In this document: positions 14,246 to 60,332 of the stretch, one piece after another | How positions within the stretch are numbered: the stretch's first letter is position 1 | How the letters are laid out: every line of letters begins with the position of its first letter | DNA from: a virus | IMG/VR virus record: IMGVR_UViG_3300021498_000001 | Coordinates: 1-64,000 of that record | Direction: 5' to 3' (one strand) | DNA: 64,000 nucleotides | Made by a program: the position numbers and the translations under genes | Notes under the pieces: generated by a model | The model's database searches: none | Seen by the model: only the letters and a program-made list of their open reading frames with translations | What the model was told of the DNA's origin: nothing

Positions 14246-15565
14246 ATGCCTTATTTCATTAAAAAATCTCCTGAAAAACCTGCACGTTTCTACGAAGCAA
14301 CTTCTACTAGACTCTCTTTGCCTGGACAAGAGGAAACCAAATCTGAGGATTGGCCTGGGTGGAGAAGATTAACAGGTGCAGCTCCTCTTAGAGAACTTAA
14401 GCCTGGAATCTTTGAAAGAATGAGTCGTATAGCCAAATGGCTGTATGACTCTAATCCTCTTGCAAAGAGAATTATTGAATATATCAAGAATTTTGTTGTA
14501 GGTGAGGGTATCTACTTTGATGCAGAGGATGCCAGAGTTAAAGAGATACTGGATGCATTTTGGTATGATGATGTTAATAATTGGCCTCTAAGACAGCATG
14601 ACAGAATCTTAGAGCTCTGTTTATATGGAGAGAGTATCTGGCCTGTCACAGTAAATCCTTCTAATGGACATGTAAGATTGGGATTTATTGACCCTTTAGA
14701 TGTAAAAGAAGTCGTGCCTAATGAGGACAATTGCTTGATTCTAGAAAAGATAGTCTTGGCAAGGCCAATTCATGGAAAGACAGAGCTGTCTATTATAAGG
14801 CGAGATGAAAATCCAAATAGCGATACTTTTGGATATCTCTCAGGTGAATGTTTCTTCTTCGCAATCAATAAAGTAAGTAATGCAACAAGAGGAGCAAGTG
14901 ACCTCTTGCCTCTAATAGATTGGATAGATGCCTACGACCAGTTTCTCTTTACAAGACTAGAGCGACAAATGAATATCAATAACTTCTGCTGGGATGTTAC
15001 ATTAGAGGGAGCAGATAAGTATGAGATAGAGCAATTTCTTAAGAATCTGCCTCCACCTACTCCAGGTACAGTAAGAGTTCACAATGAAAAGGTAACTTGG
15101 AATGTTGTTGCGCCTAAACTTGAGGCAAGAGATGCAAACCAAGAGAGCAGGCTTATAAGAAACCATATCCTAAGTGGTGCAGGTTTTCCTCCTTACTATT
15201 TTGCAGATACAGAAGGTGTGAGAGCTGTTGCTTATGAGCAGGCATTTCCTACAGAGAAAATGCTTATTACCAGACAGAAATACTTCAAAGCAATGATTGA
15301 GTATGTCTTTAACTTTGTTATAGACCAAGCCATTATTCACAAAAGACTGCCTGCAAATGTAAATCGCAAGTTTGAAATTGTATTTCCAGAAATATCTCTA
15401 AGGGATGTAGAGAGATTAAGCAGGGCACTTAAAAATGTAACTCTTTCTTTAGAGCACTTACAGCAAAATGGATTGGTTACAAATAGAGAGGCAAAAAAGA
15501 TAATAAGAAACTTGCTTAGTCAAATGGGATTGGAGTTAGAGGAGTTAAATGGAAGAAAAGGATAA
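14246..15565 (+). CDS. Phage portal protein, 439 aa
   Basis: This forms the dodecameric ring at the capsid vertex through which DNA passes. Evidence is its place after terL, its length, and portal-like features: an N-terminal wing (WLYDSNPLAKRIIEYIKNFVVG), a central crown/stem region (LPLIDWIDAYDQFLFTRLERQMNI), and a GVRAVAYEQAFPTEKMLITRQ segment like that in SPP1/HK97-type portals. Its end overlaps the start of the next very large gene by 17 nt. Confidence 0.85.
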   Translation: MPYFIKKSPEKPARFYEATSTRLSLPGQEETKSEDWPGWRRLTGAAPLRELKPGIFERMSRIAKWLYDSNPLAKRIIEYIKNFVVGEGIYFDAEDARVKEILDAFWYDDVNNWPLRQHDRILELCLYGESIWPVTVNPSNGHVRLGFIDPLDVKEVVPNEDNCLILEKIVLARPIHGKTELSIIRRDENPNSDTFGYLSGECFFFAINKVSNATRGASDLLPLIDWIDAYDQFLFTRLERQMNINNFCWDVTLEGADKYEIEQFLKNLPPPTPGTVRVHNEKVTWNVVAPKLEARDANQESRLIRNHILSGAGFPPYYFADTEGVRAVAYEQAFPTEKMLITRQKYFKAMIEYVFNFVIDQAIIHKRLPANVNRKFEIVFPEISLRDVERLSRALKNVTLSLEHLQQNGLVTNREAKKIIRNLLSQMGLELEELNGRKG

Positions 15566-18500
15566 TTTAGATAGGCTAAGCGAGCTTCATTTAGAGCAGT
15601 TTAGAAAAGAAGGGATTGATTACGACCTTAAGAATCCTCAAACTAGATGGAAACAACTCTATGCAGACCTTCGTTACATCTTTGACTCTGGTCTGCCTAG
15701 AATTTGGAAAGGGAAAAAATGGGGAGATTGGACAGAAGAAGACTGTCTTAGATATGCAGGCAAGATTATAGATGCCTTGCGTTCAGTTTATTTTCCTTTA
15801 ATCCCACCTTCCAAGAATGACCCCAGATACAACACAAGCTACTGGAAAGCCTATCGCAAGGCAGAAGAGAAGGGATATGTCAAATCCAAGCCTCCCAAAT
15901 CAGAAGAACTACCTGAATGGGATAAAAAGCGCAAAGAGATAATCAAGACCTCTTTAGAAGAAGCAGAGAGAAAATTAGATGGACTTTATTTAACACCTCC
16001 ACATGGTGAGCTTTTCTGGACTGATGAAAAGAAGTTGCTCGTGAAAACAAAGGAGTTTGACTTATCCAAGCCTCATTATCTTATAGAAGATGGATACTGC
16101 TATGGCATTATCTCATTTAAGAAGCCTAAAGAAATAACTAAACAGCAATTCTTCTCTGAAGAGTTTAAGAAAAAACATCGCATTTTGGATACAGAAGCTT
16201 GGCAATGGTGGAGAATGACGAGGGACAATGCAGTGGAGCCTAAGCTGTATGCTTATGAGATAAAAGAATTCAAACCTTTTGATGTACCTAGAAGAGTGAG
16301 AGTGCCTAAGGGCATACAGGTTATTGTGAAGGCAGACAATATTGAATTTGTGAGTGAAGATGAAGAGAAACCTGCAAAGATTGATTGGCCTACAATGGCA
16401 GCAAAGGAGGCAAAGACTGATTTTATTAAATTCTATGGTACAAAAGGATATATAGAAGAGGAGAGTGAAAGACATAAATATCATACCTGTATTTTATTTT
16501 CTCTAAATGACACAAATATCTTGTTAGATTATGGAGAAAGGCATCCAGCAGAGATAGAAGAAAGAGTGGATGTAGTATTGAACTCGCATCGGCACGTCGA
16601 TCATATATGCCCTGAAACAGTCAACTTTGCTTGCCCTTTATATGTATCTCAGCAAACTTTAGAAAGAGTAGATTTTCCTCTGCCTGAAGACATTAGAGTC
16701 TATCGGCCCAGAGAACCTTTTAAAATCGACAATATAGAAATCACTGCCTATCCAGTTTACCACTCTATTCGTGCTCCTATGCATATCTTCAAAATCGAAA
16801 CAGACAATCTTGCCATAGGAGTAATGACTGATTTTTTGGGATTTAGAGACAAGAATGATGAGGACTCCTTTTATCCAGATTTAGACATTGTAATTATAGA
16901 TGGCAGTAGCATTACAAGAGATTTAAGGCGATGGAGAGAAGAGCATGACGAGCCTTTTGGACATGAGAGTGTAATACACCAGATAGAAAGGATTAGAGAT
17001 AAGTGTGAGAAAAATCCTGTAATAATCCTCACTCATATAGGCAATGAAGGACTTGAGCTAGGTGATGAGAGAATTCTAGAGTTATTGTCAGAGCAATTTC
17101 CTAATATGAGGATATATGTTGCCAAAGATGGCAGTATATTTGATTTGAAGACAAAGCGATTTACAGAAGCATTCAAAGGAGAACAAATCTGCAAAGATAT
17201 AGTTGCAAACTTGCCTTCCTTTACATGGATACCTGAATTTGTAAGCATAACAGGCTCTACCTTATTTACAAAAGACCATGCGCCTAGAGATTTAGATGTG
17301 ATGTGCAAGGCAGAAGAAATAAATGGAAAGTGGTATATACCTGTGGATACTTCTTTATTACTTAAACTGCAACGAGCGTATCAATATGCAACAAAGAAAG
17401 TATTAGGTAAGGCAATTAAAGCTGACTTTCCTCCTCCCTCGTTGATAGGCCCAAATTGGTGTGTTGATGATAAAACTGAGATTTTAACCAAGGATAGAGG
17501 TTGGGTATTATTCAAAGACTTAAAGGAATCAGACTTAGTAGCTACAGTATCAAAGGACGACTATTTAGAATTTCAGAAACCAATAAGATATTTCTCTAAT
17601 TTCTATAAAGGAAAAATGATTCATATCAAGAATAAGAATATAGATTTATTGGTCACTCCAGAACATAAGGTTATCTATTATCCATGTTTCACGAGAAATA
17701 AAAAACGAATCATATCTGAAGAATGGCAGATGATAGAAGCTCAGAAACTCCTTGAAATGAAAGGAAGAATTTATTTGAAACTAGGATGCAAATGGAAAGG
17801 TGATGGTGATTCAATATTTTGGATTCCACCCTGTATTGGATACAACATGAAGTTAGAACCGCCAGTACCAATTGATATGGAAGATTTTGCTATGTTTATG
17901 GGATGGTATTTATCTGAAGGAAGTGTTCACATTACACCAAAACAAGTTTACTCCGTCTGTATTGCACAATATGAAGACTCTCCTAAGTTTCAAGAATTAA
18001 AGGAATTACTATCTCGCTTGCCATTTGACTTTAAAGAAGTAAGAGGGAACCAAGACAATCCAGAAAAGATTACTGGATTTTGTTGCAAATCGAAACAGTT
18101 AGCTTTATATCTTAAACAATTTGGTAAATGTTATGATAAGTTTATTCCTAATGAAATTAAGAATCAAAAACCAGAAATACTGAAAAGATTTTTAGAATGT
18201 TATTTCTATGGCGATGGACATTTGAGAAAAAGAGCAAAAGGACTGTATGTTGCTAAAACTGTATCTGAACGCTTAGCTGGTGACCTGCAAGAAATTGGCT
18301 TGAAGCTAGGAATTAGAGTCTCCTATAATAAGGAAGGAAATGGAAAACGAAGAAGAATCTACATTGGTAATTTCACTCTTGAATCTAAGTGGAAAAGCAA
18401 AATGAGGCAATTATGTCGTGTTTGTCTTGAGCTTGGACATGTAAAGGAAGTACCATATGAAGGAATGATATATGCAGTTGAAGTGCCTAATGGTATTGTT

Positions 18501-21500
18501 ATTGTTAGGAGAAACTTTAGATTTTGTGTGACTGGTAACTCTTCCATTCCTGCCTACGATTTAAAACTTGTCCCCAGAAAAAATCCAGAAGTAAGAAGGA
18601 CAGGAGAAGAAGAGTTTGAAGAGAAGGTTTATGGAGTGGATTTTAAAGAAAAGCTACGCCTTCGCACCAAATCCAAAGATATTGAAAAAATGGCTCAACA
18701 GTCCCTAGAAGAAGATAAAGTTAAACCTCTTCGCTTCTTTATGCCTCTCAAACCTATAAGAGTGCAGGGCAAACATGGAGAAAGGAATACGCCTGAAAGA
18801 TTGGTAGAGCTATTTGAGCCTCAGCATTATCCTGTATATAACTCAGTCAAGAGGGATGGTTTCAGGGCCATCCTAATGTACGATGGAAATAAGGTTGTCA
18901 TTTACTCAGAAGATGGCAATGACATTACAGACCAATTGCCTACAATTGTAGAAGCAATCAAAAAACTCAAGGTTAAATCAGTCATTCTGGATGCTGAGAT
19001 TGAACTCTGGGAAAATGGACAGCATCATCCAAGAGAGGCAGCAATTGCTAAAATTCACTCCAAAGCAATAGAAGATGAGAATTTGATTGCCAATATTTTT
19101 GACTGTGTCTATCTAAATGGCCAAGACTTACACAAAGAACCTTTTGAAAAGAGATGGAAGGCATTAAATTCTATTGGCATTAAATATTCAAAGGAGACCA
19201 GCCTAGACCCAAAGCAGAAACTCAATATCATACCTCATATCCCATGCAATACACCCAAAGAGCTTCTTAAAGAGACAGAACGAATGAGAAGAGTGAAATC
19301 GAGTGAAGGATGTGTGGCCATTGCACACAATGCTGTATATCCTTTGGATGGAAAGCCAGAAGGTAACTCTTTCTGTAAGTTTCATAATAATGTGGTTGTG
19401 AGAGGGATAGTAGTACAACCAGTCGAAACACGAACCAGCGGCGTATTTAATTTGACCTGGGGTTGTTTAGCAGAAGGCCACGAAATCTTAAAGAAAGACC
19501 AGACAGAAGTAGGGCCTTATGAAAAGGTCTTAGTTATAGGCAGCACTTTTGCAGCACCTTATGTAAAAAGAGGAGCTGTTATTGAGGTTGAGTGTGAGAC
19601 AATCAATCATATCATCCATGAAGATATAGAAGGCAAACCTATAGAGATTACAGCTTGGGCACCCAGATTTATGCGAGTGGTACCTGGAGCAAAGCCAGAC
19701 AGCATAGATGATATTTTAAGAAAAGCAAGGAAAGAAAATCATGTTTTGCAGATTAAAATAGTTAAACCTGATGGCACAGTAGAGTACAGAGAGTCAAAGA
19801 AAGAACTCCTTTGCTTTCTTACAGAAGAACCTACTTTAGAGAGTCAGATAAGCGATAGATTTGGCGCAGCCAAATATGCTGTGTTCTTTGAACCTGCTAC
19901 TTATCACTTTGAAGCAGTAGATTTGTCTAATTTTAGAACAGGTGTAGAGATTGCAGATTTAATAAAGCAGCATCAGGCAACTAAAGTCATTACAAATCAA
20001 ATAGGAAGATTTAGCAGAGACGAATTAGAAAAAGCTGGCATTGAGATTGATTTTGCAGAGGGAAGGGTGAGTGATTATTTGAAAAAGGAGCTGGGAGAGA
20101 GTCCTTTGGTAAAGGAGGCAGAAATAAGGGAGCAGGGTGACCCATATATGCAGTATTTCGATGAGGATAAAGAGCATAGAGTGTGCAACCAGAGGCATTA
20201 TAGATTTGCTCTTAAGGACATACTCAAAGAGACTGGAATGGAAGATGAATGGCCTGATGAGTGGACAGAAGAAGATTGGCGAAAAAATTGGGATTCTTGG
20301 AAAAGAAGAGTATATCCAAAATTAAGGAAATATTTTGAAACTCATCCTGAATATGAGCATAGTCCTTCAACTCATGTAGATCAAAGATATGAGACAGATA
20401 GTGGTGCATTGATTGGATGGACTATATTGGATTCACTGCCAGATAGACCTAAAGTGCCTCCTCTTTCTTTGGAGGATGCCAAAAAGTTTGATAGAGATCC
20501 TTCTAATTGGAAGATTGATTGGAACACAGGTGAATGGGCTTGGCGTGAAAAAAAAGGTGGAGCAAAGGCAAGAATTTCAATTGTAGTAAGGAAAAAGTCA
20601 CCAGAGCCCCTAGACTGGCTCACTTTTGAGGGTGAACAGCCCCCCAAATCGGTTGGTGCAACAGCTTATGGCCCTGCTATCTTTACTCACATTACTCCTT
20701 TAGGAGTAGTTGAGACGCTCAGCCAGAAAAGTTACATGCATGAATACTATCTCACATTTCCCAATTTTAAATGGCATATAGTATTTCGTCTTTTGAGGAA
20801 ACCATTTGTGCAGAAAGAATCATTTAAGGAAGCACTGAGAACACAAGATTATGAGCGTCTTTCAGAAATGGTTGAATTAGAAGAAGGCGAATCTTTAGAA
20901 GAAGGCTTGTATCTAGAAGCTAAGAGATTTATTCCAGTTTCTAAGGGCGGGTGGGGGCTGGAGGAAAGTGGATGGGTAGCTATTTATGTCACAAGAGAAC
21001 CCTATGTTATTTCAAAGCGTGCAGTACAATTGAAATGGATTCCACCTTATCCCTACAGCGCCCTCCCTCGCCATATCAAGAAACAAATCCCACCTGAATA
21101 TCACTACTGGAAAGAAAAGGATATGCAAAAGCGCATAGAGATAAGGGATGCTCTTGTTAAAGCTATCAAAGAAAAGAAAGTTGTATTGAAGGAGAGTATT
21201 GTAAGAGACTTTAAACTTGACTTTCACTGGAGCGAACCTGCTGAGTTGGTGAAGCGTCGCAGCCCCGCCCACAAACATTGGGACCTTCGAATCGATGGCG
21301 ACCTCAAAAAGAAAACAGGTTATATCTTCCACGCAGTCTTAGAACTCAATCCCTTAGAAGTTGACTCTACTTCTGCATATCTCAAGAAATGCAAAGGAGA
21401 TGAAGGCGGCATTGATTGGATGAACGTGGGCAAAGAAAAGACAGTTAAATTCACAAAGGGCCCAGGAACATTTGAAAAGAATGAGCCAGGGTACATAAGA

Positions 21501-21659
21501 GCATTGGATTGGGGCAGAGTTTTAGTGCTTGAAGACTCTCCTCTCTTTAAGAAGTTTCAATTTAAGGGCAAAAAATTAAAAGGTATCTGGATTATGTACA
21601 GAAGCAGTCCAGATACAGATATTTGGATATTTGAAAAGAGTAAGAATATAGGCAAATAA
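15549..21659 (+). CDS. 2036-aa multidomain protein: MBL nuclease, nucleotidyltransferase, intein, DNA ligase, NifX-like, LigD-PE-like
   Basis: Domains in order: an unrecognised helical N-terminus (1-300); a metallo-beta-lactamase domain with HxHxDH at 347-352; a pol-beta-type nucleotidyltransferase with GS at 569-570 and DLD at 581-583; an intein at 638-997; an ATP-dependent ligase/nucleotidyltransferase core (KRDG with Lys1101, LDAE with Glu1150, EG motif IV near 1253, Lys1277); a NifX/dinitrogenase-cofactor-like domain at about 1420-1512; then two LigD phosphoesterase-like motifs, THVDQR (1608-1613) and HKHWDLR (1908-1914). The combination suggests DNA end processing and sealing. It overlaps the portal gene and precedes the capsid gene, so it is expressed late and might be packaged. 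Mature length after splicing would be 1676 aa. Confidence 0.8.
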   Translation: MEEKDNLDRLSELHLEQFRKEGIDYDLKNPQTRWKQLYADLRYIFDSGLPRIWKGKKWGDWTEEDCLRYAGKIIDALRSVYFPLIPPSKNDPRYNTSYWKAYRKAEEKGYVKSKPPKSEELPEWDKKRKEIIKTSLEEAERKLDGLYLTPPHGELFWTDEKKLLVKTKEFDLSKPHYLIEDGYCYGIISFKKPKEITKQQFFSEEFKKKHRILDTEAWQWWRMTRDNAVEPKLYAYEIKEFKPFDVPRRVRVPKGIQVIVKADNIEFVSEDEEKPAKIDWPTMAAKEAKTDFIKFYGTKGYIEEESERHKYHTCILFSLNDTNILLDYGERHPAEIEERVDVVLNSHRHVDHICPETVNFACPLYVSQQTLERVDFPLPEDIRVYRPREPFKIDNIEITAYPVYHSIRAPMHIFKIETDNLAIGVMTDFLGFRDKNDEDSFYPDLDIVIIDGSSITRDLRRWREEHDEPFGHESVIHQIERIRDKCEKNPVIILTHIGNEGLELGDERILELLSEQFPNMRIYVAKDGSIFDLKTKRFTEAFKGEQICKDIVANLPSFTWIPEFVSITGSTLFTKDHAPRDLDVMCKAEEINGKWYIPVDTSLLLKLQRAYQYATKKVLGKAIKADFPPPSLIGPNWCVDDKTEILTKDRGWVLFKDLKESDLVATVSKDDYLEFQKPIRYFSNFYKGKMIHIKNKNIDLLVTPEHKVIYYPCFTRNKKRIISEEWQMIEAQKLLEMKGRIYLKLGCKWKGDGDSIFWIPPCIGYNMKLEPPVPIDMEDFAMFMGWYLSEGSVHITPKQVYSVCIAQYEDSPKFQELKELLSRLPFDFKEVRGNQDNPEKITGFCCKSKQLALYLKQFGKCYDKFIPNEIKNQKPEILKRFLECYFYGDGHLRKRAKGLYVAKTVSERLAGDLQEIGLKLGIRVSYNKEGNGKRRRIYIGNFTLESKWKSKMRQLCRVCLELGHVKEVPYEGMIYAVEVPNGIVIVRRNFRFCVTGNSSIPAYDLKLVPRKNPEVRRTGEEEFEEKVYGVDFKEKLRLRTKSKDIEKMAQQSLEEDKVKPLRFFMPLKPIRVQGKHGERNTPERLVELFEPQHYPVYNSVKRDGFRAILMYDGNKVVIYSEDGNDITDQLPTIVEAIKKLKVKSVILDAEIELWENGQHHPREAAIAKIHSKAIEDENLIANIFDCVYLNGQDLHKEPFEKRWKALNSIGIKYSKETSLDPKQKLNIIPHIPCNTPKELLKETERMRRVKSSEGCVAIAHNAVYPLDGKPEGNSFCKFHNNVVVRGIVVQPVETRTSGVFNLTWGCLAEGHEILKKDQTEVGPYEKVLVIGSTFAAPYVKRGAVIEVECETINHIIHEDIEGKPIEITAWAPRFMRVVPGAKPDSIDDILRKARKENHVLQIKIVKPDGTVEYRESKKELLCFLTEEPTLESQISDRFGAAKYAVFFEPATYHFEAVDLSNFRTGVEIADLIKQHQATKVITNQIGRFSRDELEKAGIEIDFAEGRVSDYLKKELGESPLVKEAEIREQGDPYMQYFDEDKEHRVCNQRHYRFALKDILKETGMEDEWPDEWTEEDWRKNWDSWKRRVYPKLRKYFETHPEYEHSPSTHVDQRYETDSGALIGWTILDSLPDRPKVPPLSLEDAKKFDRDPSNWKIDWNTGEWAWREKKGGAKARISIVVRKKSPEPLDWLTFEGEQPPKSVGATAYGPAIFTHITPLGVVETLSQKSYMHEYYLTFPNFKWHIVFRLLRKPFVQKESFKEALRTQDYERLSEMVELEEGESLEEGLYLEAKRFIPVSKGGWGLEESGWVAIYVTREPYVISKRAVQLKWIPPYPYSALPRHIKKQIPPEYHYWKEKDMQKRIEIRDALVKAIKEKKVVLKESIVRDFKLDFHWSEPAELVKRRSPAHKHWDLRIDGDLKKKTGYIFHAVLELNPLEVDSTSAYLKKCKGDEGGIDWMNVGKEKTVKFTKGPGTFEKNEPGYIRALDWGRVLVLEDSPLFKKFQFKGKKLKGIWIMYRSSPDTDIWIFEKSKNIGK
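17460..18539 (+). mobile_element. LAGLIDADG intein, 360 aa, inside the multidomain protein
   Basis: The intein begins with Cys638 (CVDDKTEILTKDRGW, block A). It has a block B TPEH motif (LLVTPEHKVIY), two LAGLIDADG helices (MFMGWYLSEGSVHI and FLECYFYGDGHL) of a homing endonuclease, and a C-terminal block (EGMIYAVEVPNGIVIVRRNF then FCVTGN). It ends in Asn997 with Ser998 as the first extein residue. The residue before the terminal Asn is Gly rather than the usual His, a known variation that can slow splicing. The insertion point lies between the nucleotidyltransferase and ligase domains. Confidence 0.92.
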
Positions 21660-25226: not shown

Positions 25227-26429
25227 ATGGCACTAGCAACAGAATTTGAATACATCAATCCATCTCCATCCTTCTTTATTGTAACAGGTTGTCCTCGTTC
25301 TGGCACTACATTTTTGATTGAACAAATCAAAGAACACCTTAAAGTGCCAGTCTTGGGATATGATGACCTAGTCTTACATAGAGAATGGAAAACAGCAATA
25401 GAGGCCAATGCTATTCTTTTAGGAGATGTGTTTGCAGACCTTAGTAAAGGAGCACCTAAGGCTGAGGAAGTAGAAAAGCAATATCCAGAATTCAAAGAAT
25501 TTCTTGAGTCACATAAAGATGAGTTCAGTGAATATGGTCTTTATTTCTTCAAAGACCCAAGAATATGCTACACATGGCCATTCTGGATGAGATTATTTGA
25601 AATAAGAATAATTCACATTGTGAGAGATTTTGAGGGTGTCTTTAACAGCATAGACGAAATGGATAAAGTAGGAGATAAAGAGGTTAGATTCAGATGGATT
25701 AGACCAAGAGAAGAATGGCATGAGATTTGGGAAAATCATGTAAATGGAGCAAGAGAAAGCAATAAGTATGTGCCCTATCTAGAGATCCCATTTGAGTCAT
25801 TTGTGAAAGATCCTAAGCCTTGGCTTATAAAAATAGCAAAATTCGTGAAAGCACCTGAAAAGTGCCTCAATCTAGGAAGTGGTCTTGCACCCAGAGCAGG
25901 CAGTGAATGGGTAAATGTGGATTACAACAAGGATTATATACCACCTACCAAATATGATGTTTATGGAGTAGTTGCAGATTTGGAAAATCCCTTGCCTTTT
26001 AAAGATTATACTTATTCATTCATAGTTGCAAATCATGTCCTTGAGCATATCAAGAATTATGAACAATTGATGTGTGAAATATACAGAGTGCTCAAAATTG
26101 GAGGAAGATTAATTATCAGAGTTCCTTATGCATTCTGTCGTGCAGCGATTGCAGACCCCACTCATGTAAGACAATTTGTACCTGAGTCATTCTTTCATTT
26201 TTTACCAGAAAATTTAGGGCCAGTAGCTAATCCTAAGTTTTGGGGCACATTTAAGATTATAGATTTGGAAGTGATTAAGCATGACAGGCCAGAGATAGAC
26301 AGGGGTGAGGTAGGCAGCTACTATTCAGAGGTGTTTTGTGAAATGGAGAAAATCCCTAAACAACAACCTCCTAAGCCAAACTGGACTATAAGGCAAGAAG
26401 ATGAGCAAAGGCAAAGCAATCATATTTAG
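25227..26429 (+). CDS. Sulfotransferase-methyltransferase fusion, 400 aa
   Basis: Residues 15-200 form a PAPS-type sulfotransferase with the P-loop GCPRSGTTFL at 21-30 and a later IIHIVRDFEGVFNS motif like the 3'-phosphate binding region. Residues 210-385 form a SAM-dependent methyltransferase: LNLGSGLAPRAG, an acidic VNVDY, VADLENPLPF, and the type-11 signature VANHVLEHIKNYEQLM with RVLKIGGRLIIRVP. The enzyme could sulfate and methylate a glycan or virion surface group. It overlaps the next gene, a GT9-like glycosyltransferase, by 29 nt. Confidence 0.82.
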   Translation: MALATEFEYINPSPSFFIVTGCPRSGTTFLIEQIKEHLKVPVLGYDDLVLHREWKTAIEANAILLGDVFADLSKGAPKAEEVEKQYPEFKEFLESHKDEFSEYGLYFFKDPRICYTWPFWMRLFEIRIIHIVRDFEGVFNSIDEMDKVGDKEVRFRWIRPREEWHEIWENHVNGARESNKYVPYLEIPFESFVKDPKPWLIKIAKFVKAPEKCLNLGSGLAPRAGSEWVNVDYNKDYIPPTKYDVYGVVADLENPLPFKDYTYSFIVANHVLEHIKNYEQLMCEIYRVLKIGGRLIIRVPYAFCRAAIADPTHVRQFVPESFFHFLPENLGPVANPKFWGTFKIIDLEVIKHDRPEIDRGEVGSYYSEVFCEMEKIPKQQPPKPNWTIRQEDEQRQSNHI

Positions 26430-54987: not shown

Positions 54988-55302
54988 ATGAATAAAATAG
55001 ATAAATATTGGTTGGTCAAAATTGGGCCTAGTTGGCAAGATCCTCTTTGGATATTTGTAGCAGAAAATTATGAAACAGCGAAAGATTTTGTCTTTGAGAT
55101 AATGAAACGGTCTGCTTATAACGATTGGAGTATAGATGAGTCTAAAGATTTGCTAAATGTATATAGTGATAATCTAAAAATATGGATTGAGGTAGAACAA
55201 GCTGAATATTTAAGCAAGTCCTCAATAAATGCCTTATTGGGTTCACTTGCAAACGTGTTTGCCTTTAAGACTCTTGATAAGGAGAAACATAGCAATGCCT
55301 AG
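54988..55302 (+). CDS. Hypothetical protein, 104 aa, paralogue of the gene at 63626
   Basis: The product (MNKIDKYWLVKIGPSWQDPLW, ETAKDFVFEIMKRSAYNDW, LKIWIEVEQAEYLSKSSI) matches the partial gene at the right edge in order and spacing of strands and helices. I start at ATG 54988 after TAAGGAGG; an upstream in-frame ATG is less likely. Function unknown. Confidence 0.65.
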   Translation: MNKIDKYWLVKIGPSWQDPLWIFVAENYETAKDFVFEIMKRSAYNDWSIDESKDLLNVYSDNLKIWIEVEQAEYLSKSSINALLGSLANVFAFKTLDKEKHSNA

Positions 55303-55762
55303 AAAACAACCTATATGGTACCGCAAAGGCTTTTCTACAGGTGGCAGATATGATTGGGAATTAGAGGCAGAAATAAGAGGTTATTCTTCTGTTAAGGAAA
55401 TGCTTGAGGATTTATACATCAAAAAAAACATGACTTATTATCAAGTTGCAGATTATCTGGGGGGCATTAGTGCTGGCGGTGTATTTAATAAACTCAAACG
55501 ATTGGGAATTTCAAAAGGATATAAGAGACATTTTAACAATAAATTTGAAGAACTTTTCCCCAAAGTCAAAAAGTGTTTAGAACAAGGACGATATTTGAAA
55601 GACTGTCTTGCACTAATAGGCTATAAATCTTGCGGCAATTGCAATGAAGGGTTTGTGGGATGGATGAAAAGGCATAAAGGATTAGTAAATAAAGGGTGCA
55701 GAAAATATCCTAAATGGGTGTTTGAAGAAAATAAACAAGGAGAACAGGATGCCAGAAAATAA
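55295..55762 (+). CDS. Helix-turn-helix protein coupled to tasA, 155 aa
   Basis: The region MLEDLYIKKNMTYYQVADYLG, then SAGGVFNKLKRLGISKGY, is a helix-turn-helix of the kind found in phage DNA-binding and homing-associated proteins. Four cysteines follow (YKSCGNCNEGF and GCRKYPKW). ATG 55295 follows AAGGAG and overlaps the upstream gene by 8 nt. Its end overlaps the Tas start by 14 nt, so the two are co-translated. It may regulate the TIGR locus; this is inference. Confidence 0.6.
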   Translation: MPRKQPIWYRKGFSTGGRYDWELEAEIRGYSSVKEMLEDLYIKKNMTYYQVADYLGGISAGGVFNKLKRLGISKGYKRHFNNKFEELFPKVKKCLEQGRYLKDCLALIGYKSCGNCNEGFVGWMKRHKGLVNKGCRKYPKWVFEENKQGEQDARK

Positions 55763-56645
55763 AATACAGAAACCTATAAGGCAATTAGTGCGAAGCATTT
55801 ATGATTTACAAGAAGATAGAAAGAGAATTGGTCTTAGGCTAGTGAATCATTTTATGGTGAAAATGGGAATTGCGCCTTCCCAGAAAAGAGGCAAAGCGAG
55901 GCAGTTATTAGACCAGTTAAAGCAAGAATATAAGAGAATCACAGACGGTCTCCTAGAAGAGCCTAATGTTAGAAAGCTGTTGAAAGAGAAAGGATTGATT
56001 ACCGATGAAGCAGAGATGATTTTGGTATCCATGTATTTTGATTTGTTGAAGAGAGAAGAGCAACAAGTTAAGGCTTTAGAAAAGGTATTGGAACAAGAGC
56101 GTATTTATACAACCTTTCTGAAGAATATCAAAGGTATTGGACCTCTACTAAGCGGTGTGCTTATATCGGAGATAGATATAACAAAGGCTAAATATGCAAG
56201 CTCTCTTTGGAAGTATGCGGGCCTTGATGTAATCACTTATTATGATGAAAATAAGAAGCAGTGGATAACAGAAGGCAGGCGAATGAAAACAACCCATTTA
56301 GAGGAGAGAGAGTATATAGACAAAGATGGGAAGAAGAAAGTTAAGAAGACTCTCACTTTCAATCCATTCCTAAAAAGCAAGTTGGTAGCAGAAAAGGGTG
56401 TAGCTCACAACTTCATAATGCACAGAACAGAACCTTATTATAGCATGTATTTGAACTACAAGTTTAGAGTGAGAAATAAGCCTGAGTATAAAGATGAATC
56501 TGATGGGCATATTCATAATATGGCTAAGAGGTATATTGCAAAGCAGTTTTTAATTGTGTATTATAAGAAGGCAAGAGAACTGGCTGGATTGCCTGTATAT
56601 AATCCTTATGCAGAGGCAAAGCTAGGAATAAAGCATGCTGTATAG
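55749..56645 (+). CDS. tasA: TIGR-associated protein, TasA type (Nop/IS110-like), 298 aa
   Basis: Residues 1-120 are a long helical region; 121-160 hold the helix-hairpin-helix-like NIKGIGPLLSGVLISEI and a KYAGLD motif as in the IS110 Transposase_20 domain and Nop-type RNA-binding proteins. The region 200-280 (FLKSKLVAEKGVAHNF, HIHNMAKRYIAKQFLIVYYKKA) is the matching C-terminal helix set. No IS110 DEDD catalytic domain, HNH or RuvC nuclease is present. The gene ends at the first unit of the 36-bp array. Together they match TIGR-Tas systems, in which the Nop protein binds processed 36-nt guide RNAs and finds DNA. ATG 55749 follows AAGGAG. Without a nuclease it would bind DNA, for example to repress or mark targets. 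Confidence 0.85.
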   Translation: MPENKIQKPIRQLVRSIYDLQEDRKRIGLRLVNHFMVKMGIAPSQKRGKARQLLDQLKQEYKRITDGLLEEPNVRKLLKEKGLITDEAEMILVSMYFDLLKREEQQVKALEKVLEQERIYTTFLKNIKGIGPLLSGVLISEIDITKAKYASSLWKYAGLDVITYYDENKKQWITEGRRMKTTHLEEREYIDKDGKKKVKKTLTFNPFLKSKLVAEKGVAHNFIMHRTEPYYSMYLNYKFRVRNKPEYKDESDGHIHNMAKRYIAKQFLIVYYKKARELAGLPVYNPYAEAKLGIKHAV

Positions 56646-57590
56646 CCATATGGATGAAGTTTCCCGCTGCATTCTAGCGAGCCATAGCTTTATAGGCAAC
56701 CATGCTTTTGAAGCGAGCCATAGCGGAACTGATAACCATGTTGCTTGAGCGAGTCATGCTATTAGAGTTATCCACTGCCAAGAAGCGGGTCCTAATTTTT
56801 CAGGTAACCTTGATAACATAGCGAGCCTTATTGACTGAGACAACCAAGATAAAGGAGCGAGCCTGATTTTCCAAGATAACCTCGATAAAATAGCGAGCCA
56901 GAAAATTTTAGACATCCACAATTGAAAAGCGAGCCACATGTACCCAGATATCCATTATTACAGAGCGAGCCGCAATAACACAGACGACCATGATTTGTGA
57001 GCAAGCCACTCTTTTCCAGTTGACCATTAAAGTTGAGCGAGCCATAGACAAATAGTTAACCATGATGTATAAGCGAGCCATGTACACTAAGTCAACCATT
57101 CGTTATTAGCGAGTCGCAGATGGTAAGTTAGCCATGTTGATATAGCGAGGCCATATTTGAATAGTCAACCATCTGAGAGAAGCGAGCCATATAGATTAAG
57201 GCAACCGAAATTTCCTAGCGCCATTAGAAAGGAGTTAGCCAAGGTGATTGAGCGAGTGGTAGATATCCCTGAATCTTAAGCGAGTCATTTTAAAGGAGGC
57301 AACCACGTCTGGTGAGCGAGCCACTTTCGCACAGATAACCACCCAAGGCAAGCGAGCCATTTGATTTAAGACAACCATTTTGTGATAGCGAATGCCATAA
57401 TTCCTGAGCTAACCCACGATAATGAGCGAGTCATGATTAGTTAGACATCCCATAGAGACGAAGCGAGCCATTATTGTCAAGACACCCATTATGTTTTAGC
57501 GAGCCCTTAATGCCAAGATAACCATTTTCCCATAGCGCAATCTAAGCCATATCAGTTAAGCTACCCAAGCCTTTAGAGCGAAACTCCCTT
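56641..57590 (+). repeat. TIGR array: about 25 units of mostly 36 bp with paired 8-nt spacers
   Basis: From 56677 the sequence repeats with a period of 36 bp, 13 times without a slip and about 25 times in all. Each unit is GCGAGCCAT, 8 variable bases, AGNYAACCAT, 8 variable bases, A. CCAT recurs every 18 bp. Variable segments differ in nearly every unit. A degenerate unit lies at 56641-56676, overlapping the tasA stop codon, and a partial one (GCGAAAC) ends the array. Irregular units: 57145 (37), 57218 (34), 57252 (28, one spacer missing), 57388 (38), 57426 (37), 57535 (43). The array is not coding, because the indels break all frames. Expected product: 36-nt tigRNAs with two spacers each. 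Confidence 0.9.
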
Positions 57591-57599
57591 ACCTTCTTT

Positions 57600-57990
57600 T
57601 TATTTTGATACACTTGAGACAGTTATCACACTTAGTACATTCGAAACACTTGATACAGTTGAGACAGTTAGCATAGAATATACAGAAATATCACAGTAAT
57701 CCTTGAAAATCCAGAAATATCAAGCATGATACACTATGCAACACTTTGATACAGTTATGGACATAAGACACATCGGATTTTTCTCTCAAAATCAAGATAT
57801 AATCTATAAAATCAGGGACACCCTTTCAACCTTTGATACAGTTTGAGACATTATGGACATAAGACACATCGGGATTTAGCTAGATATAGCAAGGAAAATC
57901 CAGGATTTTGGAGAATTTTTTGATACACCTGTGTGTGTGTGTATCAGTGTATCTTGGTTTATATAAATATAAATATATATAACGGCCTAG
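57600..57990. other. Iteron-like repeats and AT-rich stretch, candidate replication origin
   Basis: No gene is seen. TTGATACAGTT-like words recur at about 57650, 57740 and 57832, with variants such as TTGATACACTTGAGACAGTT. A 19-bp direct repeat (TGGACATAAGACACATCGG) occurs at 57762 and 57851. A (GT)n hairpin with arms TGATACAC and GTGTATCA spans 57921-57946, and a pure AT stretch (TTTATATAAATATAAATAT) follows at 57958. Iterons plus a duplex-unwinding element is the usual layout of a phage or plasmid origin. It lies between converging genes. Confidence 0.5.
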
Positions 57991-58557
57991 CTATGGAGTT
58001 TGAATCGAATTTAATTGGTTCCTCAAAGACTCACGATACTTTATCTCATTTTCATCCAAGTTTGCCCTTCCCCTCTTTATAACTCTATTCTCAAACTCAA
58101 AGGCTATCTTTGCCTGTTTTCTCTTTGCTCTAAGATAAGGATACAAGAATTGCAAAACAGCACCTGCTTTATACCCATAAGCTACCCAATAATATGTAGG
58201 CTTTTGAATATCTAACCTGCGATAAACCTTGCCTATTTCTAGGACTTTCTTTATTTGTCTAGGGACTTCCCTATCTTCATGTTTAATAAGGATCTCCAAT
58301 TGATAAGAAGGACATTCCCTGTCTTTTCTATTTCTCTTTGCAATCCTTATTATGCCATATTTCTCAAACAGATCTCCCAAATACATGCTCTGAGACTTCT
58401 TCTGCAATAATTTTCTTTTTAGATTGCCCAAGAAAATCTGAGTTTTGCCCATTGTATTTCTATGCTTGCATTTGGGGCATATTGCGCTTAGGTGACCTTT
58501 TCTACTTTGGGAGTAGTATAGAAATTTATGACCACAGAGTCCACATTGTATCTGCAT
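57991..58557 (-). CDS. Zinc-ribbon plus LAGLIDADG-like protein, 188 aa
   Basis: Residues 5-36 are a zinc ribbon (CGLCGHKF and CPKCKHRNTM). Residues about 58-165 resemble a single LAGLIDADG domain: YLGDLFEKYGIIRI at the place of the LAGLIDADG helix and the typical end YGYKAGAVLQFLYPYLRAKRKQAKIAFEF. The second acidic residue of the motif is replaced by Tyr, so it may bind DNA without cutting. The gene starts 8 bp after the -10 box of its own promoter and reads toward the possible origin. Confidence 0.65.
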   Translation of the reverse strand: MQIQCGLCGHKFLYYSQSRKGHLSAICPKCKHRNTMGKTQIFLGNLKRKLLQKKSQSMYLGDLFEKYGIIRIAKRNRKDRECPSYQLEILIKHEDREVPRQIKKVLEIGKVYRRLDIQKPTYYWVAYGYKAGAVLQFLYPYLRAKRKQAKIAFEFENRVIKRGRANLDENEIKYRESLRNQLNSIQTP

Positions 58558-58696: not shown

Positions 58697-59197
58697 TTAG
58701 AAAGTTTGAGACATTTCTTTAGATATTGCTTCTAACAAGACATTGGTTGGTATAGCAATGCTCTTGGTTGTATAAGTTTTGTTGTTAGCACTTATAATAT
58801 CATAACTCTTTATCCAATTCTTTCCATTCATGATCCAAGCTCGTTTTAACAACAAGACTGGTAATAGGTAAACCTTCTTGGAGGACATAATAGCATAAAC
58901 TATATAGTCAGATTGACAAGTGTAAAGCCAACCAGGTTTGCGTTGTTCCCAGATACTCCATATTTCTAACAATATGTCACCATAATCCTTTCTTCGTTTC
59001 TTCTCATCAATCGTTAAAATTCTTCCATCTTTGAAATATAAGATTTTATCTATTCCTTTCTTTTGTAAATCTAGATCTTCTACAAGTTTAATTCTCCTCA
59101 AACCAGGAAATATGCGATAGTAGAAACTATCAAATAATTCATTCTCTCGTTGATCTAGTGAATATTGTAAATCTACATCAAAATCGTTATATTTCAT
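58697..59197 (-). CDS. PD-(D/E)XK endonuclease-like protein, 166 aa
   Basis: The core KGIDKILYFKDGRILTIDEKKR has the PD-(D/E)XK arrangement with Asp50 and Glu65-x-Lys67, followed by DYGDILLEIWS. This form is seen in phage and restriction-type nucleases. I start at ATG 59197, which overlaps the methylase stop by 11 nt; the longer frame to 59275 lies within the methylase gene. Next to a DNA adenine methylase it may be a restriction partner. Confidence 0.72.
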   Translation of the reverse strand: MKYNDFDVDLQYSLDQRENELFDSFYYRIFPGLRRIKLVEDLDLQKKGIDKILYFKDGRILTIDEKKRRKDYGDILLEIWSIWEQRKPGWLYTCQSDYIVYAIMSSKKVYLLPVLLLKRAWIMNGKNWIKSYDIISANNKTYTTKSIAIPTNVLLEAISKEMSQTF

Positions 59198-60332
59198 TGC
59201 CCCATGCTTTCCAGCCCTGTCGAGTCTCTCGTGCAAAAAGCTCAAGATACTTTCCTTTGGGGCACATTTTTTCAATCATTTCATATATTAATTTGGGTTT
59301 TTCACTATGCTTGCCTCTTCTCTCACGAATTATCGAGCTAAATCTTGAATCTGGTGGAGGAACAGGGTAGTTCCCTTTAACACCTACTAATAATAACTCA
59401 TGCTGTATTCTGAACCAAAATCCCATACCTATAACTTCTTTATCCCATACAGCGCAAGTGCGATATTTGAAGCCCCAGGCTCTCATAACTTCCAAAGCTT
59501 CTTCTAACTTTGGAGCAGTTGCCCACAAAAATAATACTGCATTTTCTGCAGATGGTATTTGTAATTGCTTTATTTCATCTAGAGTCATAGTTGGGTACTG
59601 ATTTTCGATTGCTCTATTGATTGCCATTGAAAACTCATATTGCCAAGGAGGATCGGCAAGTATAACATCATATTTTTCATTATTTGTCAAAATTGATGGC
59701 TCGGTGTATAAATCTCTTATTATCTTTTGTCTTGCTTTCTTGATTGATAATCTATCCTCCTCAATAACCTTGATTATCTTTTTCTTCTCTTCAGGTGGCT
59801 TCTTATAAAGCTCAATAATATCCTGTTTTGGGTTTTGTTTGAGGATTTCTCTAGGTATGTGTTGTGTTAACTCTTCTACTGCTTGGGCTAGAAGGGCGTC
59901 GTTATAAACTGTTCTGCTTGTTACTCCTGTTTCTTCAGCTATCTTTTGAGCAGTCTCAGAAGGATCTGAAATTTTTTCAGATCCCTTACTGTAAGGTATT
60001 TGGCCCCCATGACTCTGTTTCTCCAGCAAATACTTCTTGCCTCTTAAAACACTCACCTCAAAAGGATCCAGATTTCTCCTACTTAATTGGTTATCAATAA
60101 CCCAATTAATAGCTGATTTTCTATCAGGCAAGGAGATATACCTAAAGGTTGGTTTAATATTGTGTTTTTTACAAATCTCTAATCGGTGGTGTCCATCCAA
60201 TAATATATCTTGCTCTTTCCATACAACTAATGGTTCAGTAAGGCCTTCATTTAAAATTTTTTGCTCGAGTCCCTGAAATTCATCTGGCTTTAATGGTGGT
60301 ATCAAATTCATAATATCTGGATCGATTTTCAT
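59187..60332 (-). CDS. ParB/Srx-like plus MT-A70 adenine methyltransferase, 381 aa
   Basis: Residues 1-110 form a ParB/sulfiredoxin-like domain (DILLDGHHRLEICKKHN). A helix-turn-helix follows at about 125-145 (SETAQKIAEETGVTSRTVYND). Residues 218-381 form an MT-A70 methyltransferase with DPPW at 227-230 and the RIQHELLLVGVKGN strand, of the N6-adenine family. It likely methylates DNA. It follows the small zinc gene with AAGGAGG and is coupled to the nuclease gene. Confidence 0.88.
   Translation of the reverse strand: MKIDPDIMNLIPPLKPDEFQGLEQKILNEGLTEPLVVWKEQDILLDGHHRLEICKKHNIKPTFRYISLPDRKSAINWVIDNQLSRRNLDPFEVSVLRGKKYLLEKQSHGGQIPYSKGSEKISDPSETAQKIAEETGVTSRTVYNDALLAQAVEELTQHIPREILKQNPKQDIIELYKKPPEEKKKIIKVIEEDRLSIKKARQKIIRDLYTEPSILTNNEKYDVILADPPWQYEFSMAINRAIENQYPTMTLDEIKQLQIPSAENAVLFLWATAPKLEEALEVMRAWGFKYRTCAVWDKEVIGMGFWFRIQHELLLVGVKGNYPVPPPDSRFSSIIRERRGKHSEKPKLIYEMIEKMCPKGKYLELFARETRQGWKAWGNEI

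What the first reader, a model, noticed from the sequence alone, without database searches (positions are those of the whole stretch)
55749..57590. A phage TIGR-Tas locus: Nop/IS110-like TasA followed by a 36-bp dual-spacer array
Seen: tandem units of 36 bp with two conserved blocks (GCGAGCCAT and AGNYAACCAT) and two 8-nt variable segments per unit, starting at the stop codon of a gene whose product has the IKGIGPLLSG and C-terminal helices of IS110/Nop proteins. Known: TIGR-Tas systems of phages and parasitic bacteria combine a Nop-domain protein with an array processed into 36-nt guide RNAs carrying two spacers. Inference: this is a nuclease-free TasA-type system used by the phage for DNA-binding control of host or rival DNA.
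Basis: partly seen in the sequence, partly recalled or inferred. Interest (0 to 1): 0.96.

Follow-up and report, generated by a model that had tools for sequence, protein, structure and literature searches.

The report
Phage TIGR-TasA guide-RNA locus
This phage carries a nuclease-free member of the recently described TIGR-Tas family, a protein next to 26 short RNA-guide units that should steer it to matching DNA; it is a clear new example of a known kind, and what the guides aim at is still unknown.

Summary
At 55749-56645 a 298-aa protein matches solved TasR (9mty, E=2.7e-21; profile 3.1e-41) and TasH, NCBIfam TIGR_Tas_endo (1.9e-28, 99.9 bits against a cut-off of 100), and by predicted fold TasH/TasR ahead of IS621 and Nop5. 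It has no RuvC or HNH domain, so it is a TasA. Directly after it, from within its stop codon (56644) to 57581, lie 26 units of edge repeat AGCGAGCCA, spacer A, loop repeat AGNYAACCA and spacer B; all four segments are 9 nt, so the spacers are 9 nt and not 8. About 100 non-redundant arrays from related phages show the same 9-9-9-9 plan, with edge-pair covariation and edge/loop matching as the TasR structure predicts. Guide targets were sought and not found: not the phage itself, not 3.1 Mb of related phage DNA, not 1.27 Mb of one relative's host genome. Two side results bear on array evolution: guide content is largely replaced by the time tasA has diverged about 5%, and A and B halves recombine separately. 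New member of a known kind. RNA-guided DNA binding without cleavage is very likely; a role against rival elements is inference.

The parts
55749..56645 (+). tasA, 298 aa, solo Nop-type Tas protein; AGGAG ribosome-binding site just upstream; overlaps the end of the upstream ORF by 14 bases
56644..56648 (+). 5'-truncated edge repeat (AGCCA) overlapping the tasA stop codon TAG (56643-56645)
56644..57581 (+). dual-repeat TIGR array, 26 units: edge AGCGAGCCA / spacer A 9 nt / loop AGNYAACCA / spacer B 9 nt; 20 units exactly 36 nt
56676..56684 (+). first complete edge repeat AGCGAGCCA
57577..57581 (+). 3'-truncated edge repeat AGCGA ending the array; no hairpin terminator found after it
55229..55762 (+). 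upstream ORF, 177 aa, weak HTH/HNH-type matches; overlaps the start of tasA, so probably co-transcribed; no ParB match

Best explanation
This is a dual-repeat TIGR-TasA locus in the early/replication region of a tailed phage. TasA and the array are probably one transcript, since the array starts in the stop codon. A Tas-dependent host RNase would cut the array in the edge repeats into about 26 tigRNAs of 36 nt. A TasA dimer would hold one tigRNA by box D (AG) and box C (CCA) of the edge and loop repeats. Spacers A and B would pair with opposite strands of an 18-bp target, which is unwound and bent but not cut because there is no nuclease domain. Shown here: protein family and fold, array anatomy, covariation of the repeats, absence of RuvC/HNH. 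Inferred from the characterised relatives (PMC12045711): processing, dimer, two-strand targeting, DNA bending. Inferred more loosely, my estimate about 0.45: the bound complex blocks transcription or replication of rival mobile elements in the same host. The confidence below is for the family, subtype and RNA-guided binding, not for that role.
For: Protein: PDB phmmer TasR 9mty E=2.7e-21 and TasH 21kl E=1.5e-8; 12-row profile 3.1e-41 and 5.7e-23; NCBIfam TIGR_Tas_endo 1.9e-28; AlphaFold2 model pLDDT 85.6, best PDB folds TasH 9w04 and TasR 9mty (TM 0.58), then IS621, then Nop5. Array: 9-9-9-9 plan, truncated edges at both ends. Relatives at 26-54% identity have the same arrays. In about 90 array consensuses edge positions 2 and 7 are A-T 40, G-C 36, G-T 7 and never A-C; positions 3 and 6 are C-G 77, T-A 4; edge and loop first bases always agree where both are defined, A/A 78 and T/T 12, as the TasR-tigRNA structure requires. 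Role against others: no self target, and guide content turns over much faster than tasA, as expected if targets change.
Against: No target identified for any guide. No RNA data. The NCBIfam score is 0.1 bit below its cut-off. Repeats are degenerate and six units have wrong lengths, so some guides may be dead. No rho-independent terminator follows the array, unlike most described loci. Rapid guide turnover could also come from neutral recombination.
Confidence: 0.9

Rival explanations
1. A truncated IS110 transposase with a decayed bridge-RNA or end repeat, not a Tas system.
For: Pfam Transposase_20 9.4e-5, NCBIfam IS110 1.6e-8 but 34 bits against a cut-off of 140; IS621 is the next fold after Tas.
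Against: Tas proteins score far better by sequence, profile and fold; no DEDD domain; a 26-unit dual array, which IS110 lacks; the same pairing recurs in dozens of phages.
Confidence: 0.02
2. TasA-tigRNA targets the phage's own genome, as a regulator or packaging or replication aid.
For: The gene sits in the early/replication region; paper authors list gene regulation and integrase help as options.
Against: For 20 regular units the best tandem match in the rest of the 72.6-kb genome has 3 of 18 mismatches, the same as mispaired controls, in both geometries; guides change between phages whose own genes are 95-99% identical.
Confidence: 0.08
3. TasA-tigRNA targets the host chromosome to shut down or reprogram host genes.
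For: Would suit an early phage gene; nothing here excludes it for this phage, whose host is unknown.
Against: In the one case with a likely host sequence (L096, Planctomycetota, flanked by secretion/pilus genes), 16 guides had no match better than 2 mismatches in 1.27 of 3.9 Mb, no more than mispaired controls. Fast guide turnover fits conserved host genes poorly.
Confidence: 0.2
4. A box C/D-like RNA-guided system acting on RNA rather than DNA.
For: Nop fold; Nop5 and Nop56/58 among weaker structural matches.
Against: No kink-turn or L7Ae-binding feature is apparent in the compact 9-nt repeats; the closest relatives TasR and TasH are solved on DNA.
Confidence: 0.07

Closest known systems
TIGR-TasA, dual-repeat type, e.g. 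Flavonifractor plautii FpTIGR (Faure et al. 2025, PMC12045711)
   Same: Solo Nop protein without nuclease; adjacent array of alternating short repeats with two 9-nt spacers per 36-nt unit; truncated edges at both ends; such loci are found in phages
   Different: 26 units where 5-15 are usual; repeats degenerate with several indel units; no terminator found; box D is AG rather than the UG of TasR arrays
TIGR-TasR (9mty) and TasH (21kl, 9vzx, 9w02-9w04)
   Same: Homologous Nop-type and C-terminal regions, same box C/D logic in the array
   Different: No RuvC or HNH domain here
IS110/IS621 RNA-guided transposases
   Same: Distant Nop-type RNA-binding fold
   Different: No DEDD domain; array of many guides instead of one bridge RNA
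Archaeal box C/D RNP (Nop5)
   Same: Weak fold match, box C/D-like anchors
   Different: No sign of an L7Ae kink-turn or fibrillarin; expected DNA target

Membership tests
TIGR-Tas | Nop-domain protein of the Tas family | tested here: met
   (99.9 bits, cut-off 100)
TIGR-Tas | Adjacent array of two alternating 8-12-nt repeats with about 9-nt spacers, about 36-nt unit | tested here: met
TIGR-Tas | Truncated edge repeats at both array ends | tested here: met
   AGCCA at 56644-56648, AGCGA at 57577-57581
[quoted passage not shown]
   AG...CCA in both repeats here; covariation across related arrays
TIGR-Tas | Predicted rho-independent terminator after the array (typical, not defining, in the paper) | tested here: not met
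   No candidate on the + strand between 57581 and 58259
TIGR-Tas | 36-nt tigRNAs bound by the protein | not testable with these tools
   Needs RNA sequencing
TIGR-Tas | DNA targeting by spacers A and B on opposite strands | tested here: inconclusive
   No natural target found
TasA subtype | No RuvC or HNH nuclease domain | tested here: met
   298 aa, helical N-terminus in the model; no nuclease match
IS110 family | DEDD RuvC-like transposase domain | tested here: not met

The most novel reading that the evidence does not exclude
TIGR-TasA arrays are fast-evolving guide cassettes in an arms race between mobile elements: guides are gained and replaced along the whole array, without the one-end polarity of CRISPR, and the A and B half-guides can be swapped separately by recombination at the 9-bp repeats, giving new dual-strand specificities without an adaptation module. 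This would address how TIGR arrays grow, which the discovery paper leaves open.
Probability: 0.4. Interest if true: 0.75.

Novelty: new member of a known kind. Interest (0 to 1): 0.45.

Why it matters
It adds a well-defined phage TasA with a long array to a family described only in 2025. TasA is the commonest Tas type, and its function and targets are unknown. The related loci collected here give a measure of guide turnover and of half-unit recombination, which makes the question of how such arrays evolve directly testable.

Tried and rejected
Self-targeting: none. Targets in related phage DNA: 1381 distinct guides against 2.4 Mb around tas genes and 0.7 Mb more of TasA phages, two geometries, mispaired-guide controls: no excess. 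Small excesses at 2 mismatches in one geometry did not repeat and were dropped. Host chromosome of L096: none in 1.27 Mb. Idea that variant guides follow synonymous changes of coding targets: some pairs looked striking, but overall phase coherence was 136 against 132 +/- 4 expected, so rejected. Collection-wide exact searches for 18-mers were not done because chance matches would swamp them. IS110 as the family: rejected. Rfam: nothing above threshold but a tRNA. Plasmids: no relative; named phages: only Microcystis phage Mvi-JY20 at 27% identity.

Full report
What is there. The window is bases 1-64000 of a 72,622-base phage contig. At 55749-56645 a 298-aa protein is encoded with an AGGAG ribosome-binding site. 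The upstream ORF 55229-55762 overlaps its start. Around it lie a RecT-like annealing protein, a weak match to a DnaB-like helicase, a CHC2 primase zinc finger and a tRNA-Gly, that is, a replication/early region.

Array. Reading in 9-nt blocks, the sequence from 56644 to 57581 splits into 26 units of edge AGCGAGCCA, spacer A, loop AGNYAACCA, spacer B. Twenty units are exactly 36 nt; the others carry small indels. A 25-step chain of CC at 18-nt spacing never arises in 1000 shuffles, maximum 6. The first edge is truncated (AGCCA) and overlaps the stop codon; the last is truncated (AGCGA). The paper describes such ends as typical. No hairpin terminator follows.

Protein family. phmmer against the PDB finds only two sequences, TasR 9mty (2.7e-21) and TasH 21kl (1.5e-8); a profile of 12 relatives raises this to 3.1e-41 and 5.7e-23. 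NCBIfam TIGR_Tas_endo scores 99.9 bits, a hair below its cut-off of 100, while two relatives pass it. The AlphaFold2 model (pLDDT 85.6, pTM 0.79) matches TasH and TasR first, then IS621, then weakly Nop5. No nuclease domain is found, so it is TasA.

Relatives. Searches of IMG/VR and of GTDB genomes gave well over a hundred contigs with related proteins; those aligned are 26-54% identical to this one. In 101 non-redundant arrays (median 14 units) the same plan recurs. The edge repeat covaries as the TasR-tigRNA structure demands: positions 2 and 7 are A-T (40), G-C (36) or G-T (7), positions 3 and 6 C-G (77) or T-A (4), and where both are defined the first base of edge and loop always agrees, A/A 78 or T/T 12 (structural rule). 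The array detection is automatic and a few loci had shifted registers; those were left out of this count.

Targets. Tandem targets were built in both possible orders (A then reverse complement of B, or reverse complement of A then B) and compared with guides in which A was paired with a B from another unit of the same array. The window's 20 regular guides have no match in the rest of the phage genome better than 3 mismatches of 18, no better than controls. 1381 guides from all arrays show no consistent excess over controls in 2.4 Mb around tas genes or in 0.7 Mb of further phage DNA. For L096, whose tasA sits on a contig with secretion/pilus genes, 16 guides show none in 1.27 Mb of the host assembly. 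So guides of these TasA systems do not, in this sample, aim at themselves, at each other or at the tested part of a host. By elimination other mobile elements are the best guess, but that is inference.

Guide turnover. Arrays with tasA at 99.5-100% nucleotide identity share 98% of units; at 97-99.5% 38%; at 94-97% 10%; at 90-94% 5% (this count includes duplicate contigs). In non-redundant arrays, even allowing 3 mismatches, sharing is 40%, 23% and 16% for 97-100, 94-97 and 90-94%. L028 and L032 have tasA 98.7%, upstream flank 94% and downstream flank 96% identical but share 3 of 22 and 28 units; L007 and L008 (tasA 95%) share none. Shared units keep their order in 357 of 406 comparisons and lie evenly along the array, so turnover is not concentrated at one end. 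Within single arrays 8 pairs of units share A but not B and 10 share B but not A, against 0.19 expected, which points to recombination at the repeats. These pairs are not all independent lineages and I did not test selection.

Verdict. The observation and the family call hold; spacer length is corrected to 9 nt. The mechanism of RNA-guided, two-strand DNA binding without cutting is carried over from characterised relatives. The biological role and targets are unknown. New member of a known kind, with a side result on array evolution worth following.

Noticed in passing
related arrays, e.g. L028 vs L032, L007 vs L008/L208: Guide content is replaced far faster than tasA and flanks diverge; shared units are mostly collinear and not concentrated at one end.
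   Followed up: partly
L156, L164, L025, L116 and others: Units in one array share spacer A with different B, or the reverse, about 90 times more often than chance: half-guides seem to recombine separately.
   Followed up: partly
57603-57975: AT-rich stretch right after the array with degenerate short repeats (TTGATACA, TGAGACAGTT, GACATAAGACACATCGG); L002 780-990 near its tasA has a similar cluster of AGTAACTG/CAGTTAC. Possibly iterons or operator sites.
   Followed up: no
58697-60332, strand -: An MT-A70 adenine methyltransferase (N-terminal part looks ParB-like to me, not tested) next to a 192-aa ORF with a possible PD-(D/E)XK-like motif by eye: perhaps a phage modification pair. Not in the tas operon.
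   Followed up: no
57991-58557, strand -: Probable homing-endonuclease ORF (LAGLIDADG-like, PADLOC HEase 1.2e-5, PHROG 5046 7.9e-16) beside the array.
   Followed up: partly
15549-21659: A 2036-aa ORF joins a metallo-beta-lactamase fold, an ATP-dependent DNA ligase domain and a LAGLIDADG domain that looks like part of an intein, in a phage.
   Followed up: partly
25227-26429: Sulfotransferase and methyltransferase domains fused in one phage ORF among structural genes.
   Followed up: no
L097: 522-aa Tas-like protein from an Uhrbacteria MAG with a long N-terminal region, like the inactive-RuvC TasR clade of CPR bacteria described in the paper; no dual-repeat array detected near it.
   Followed up: no
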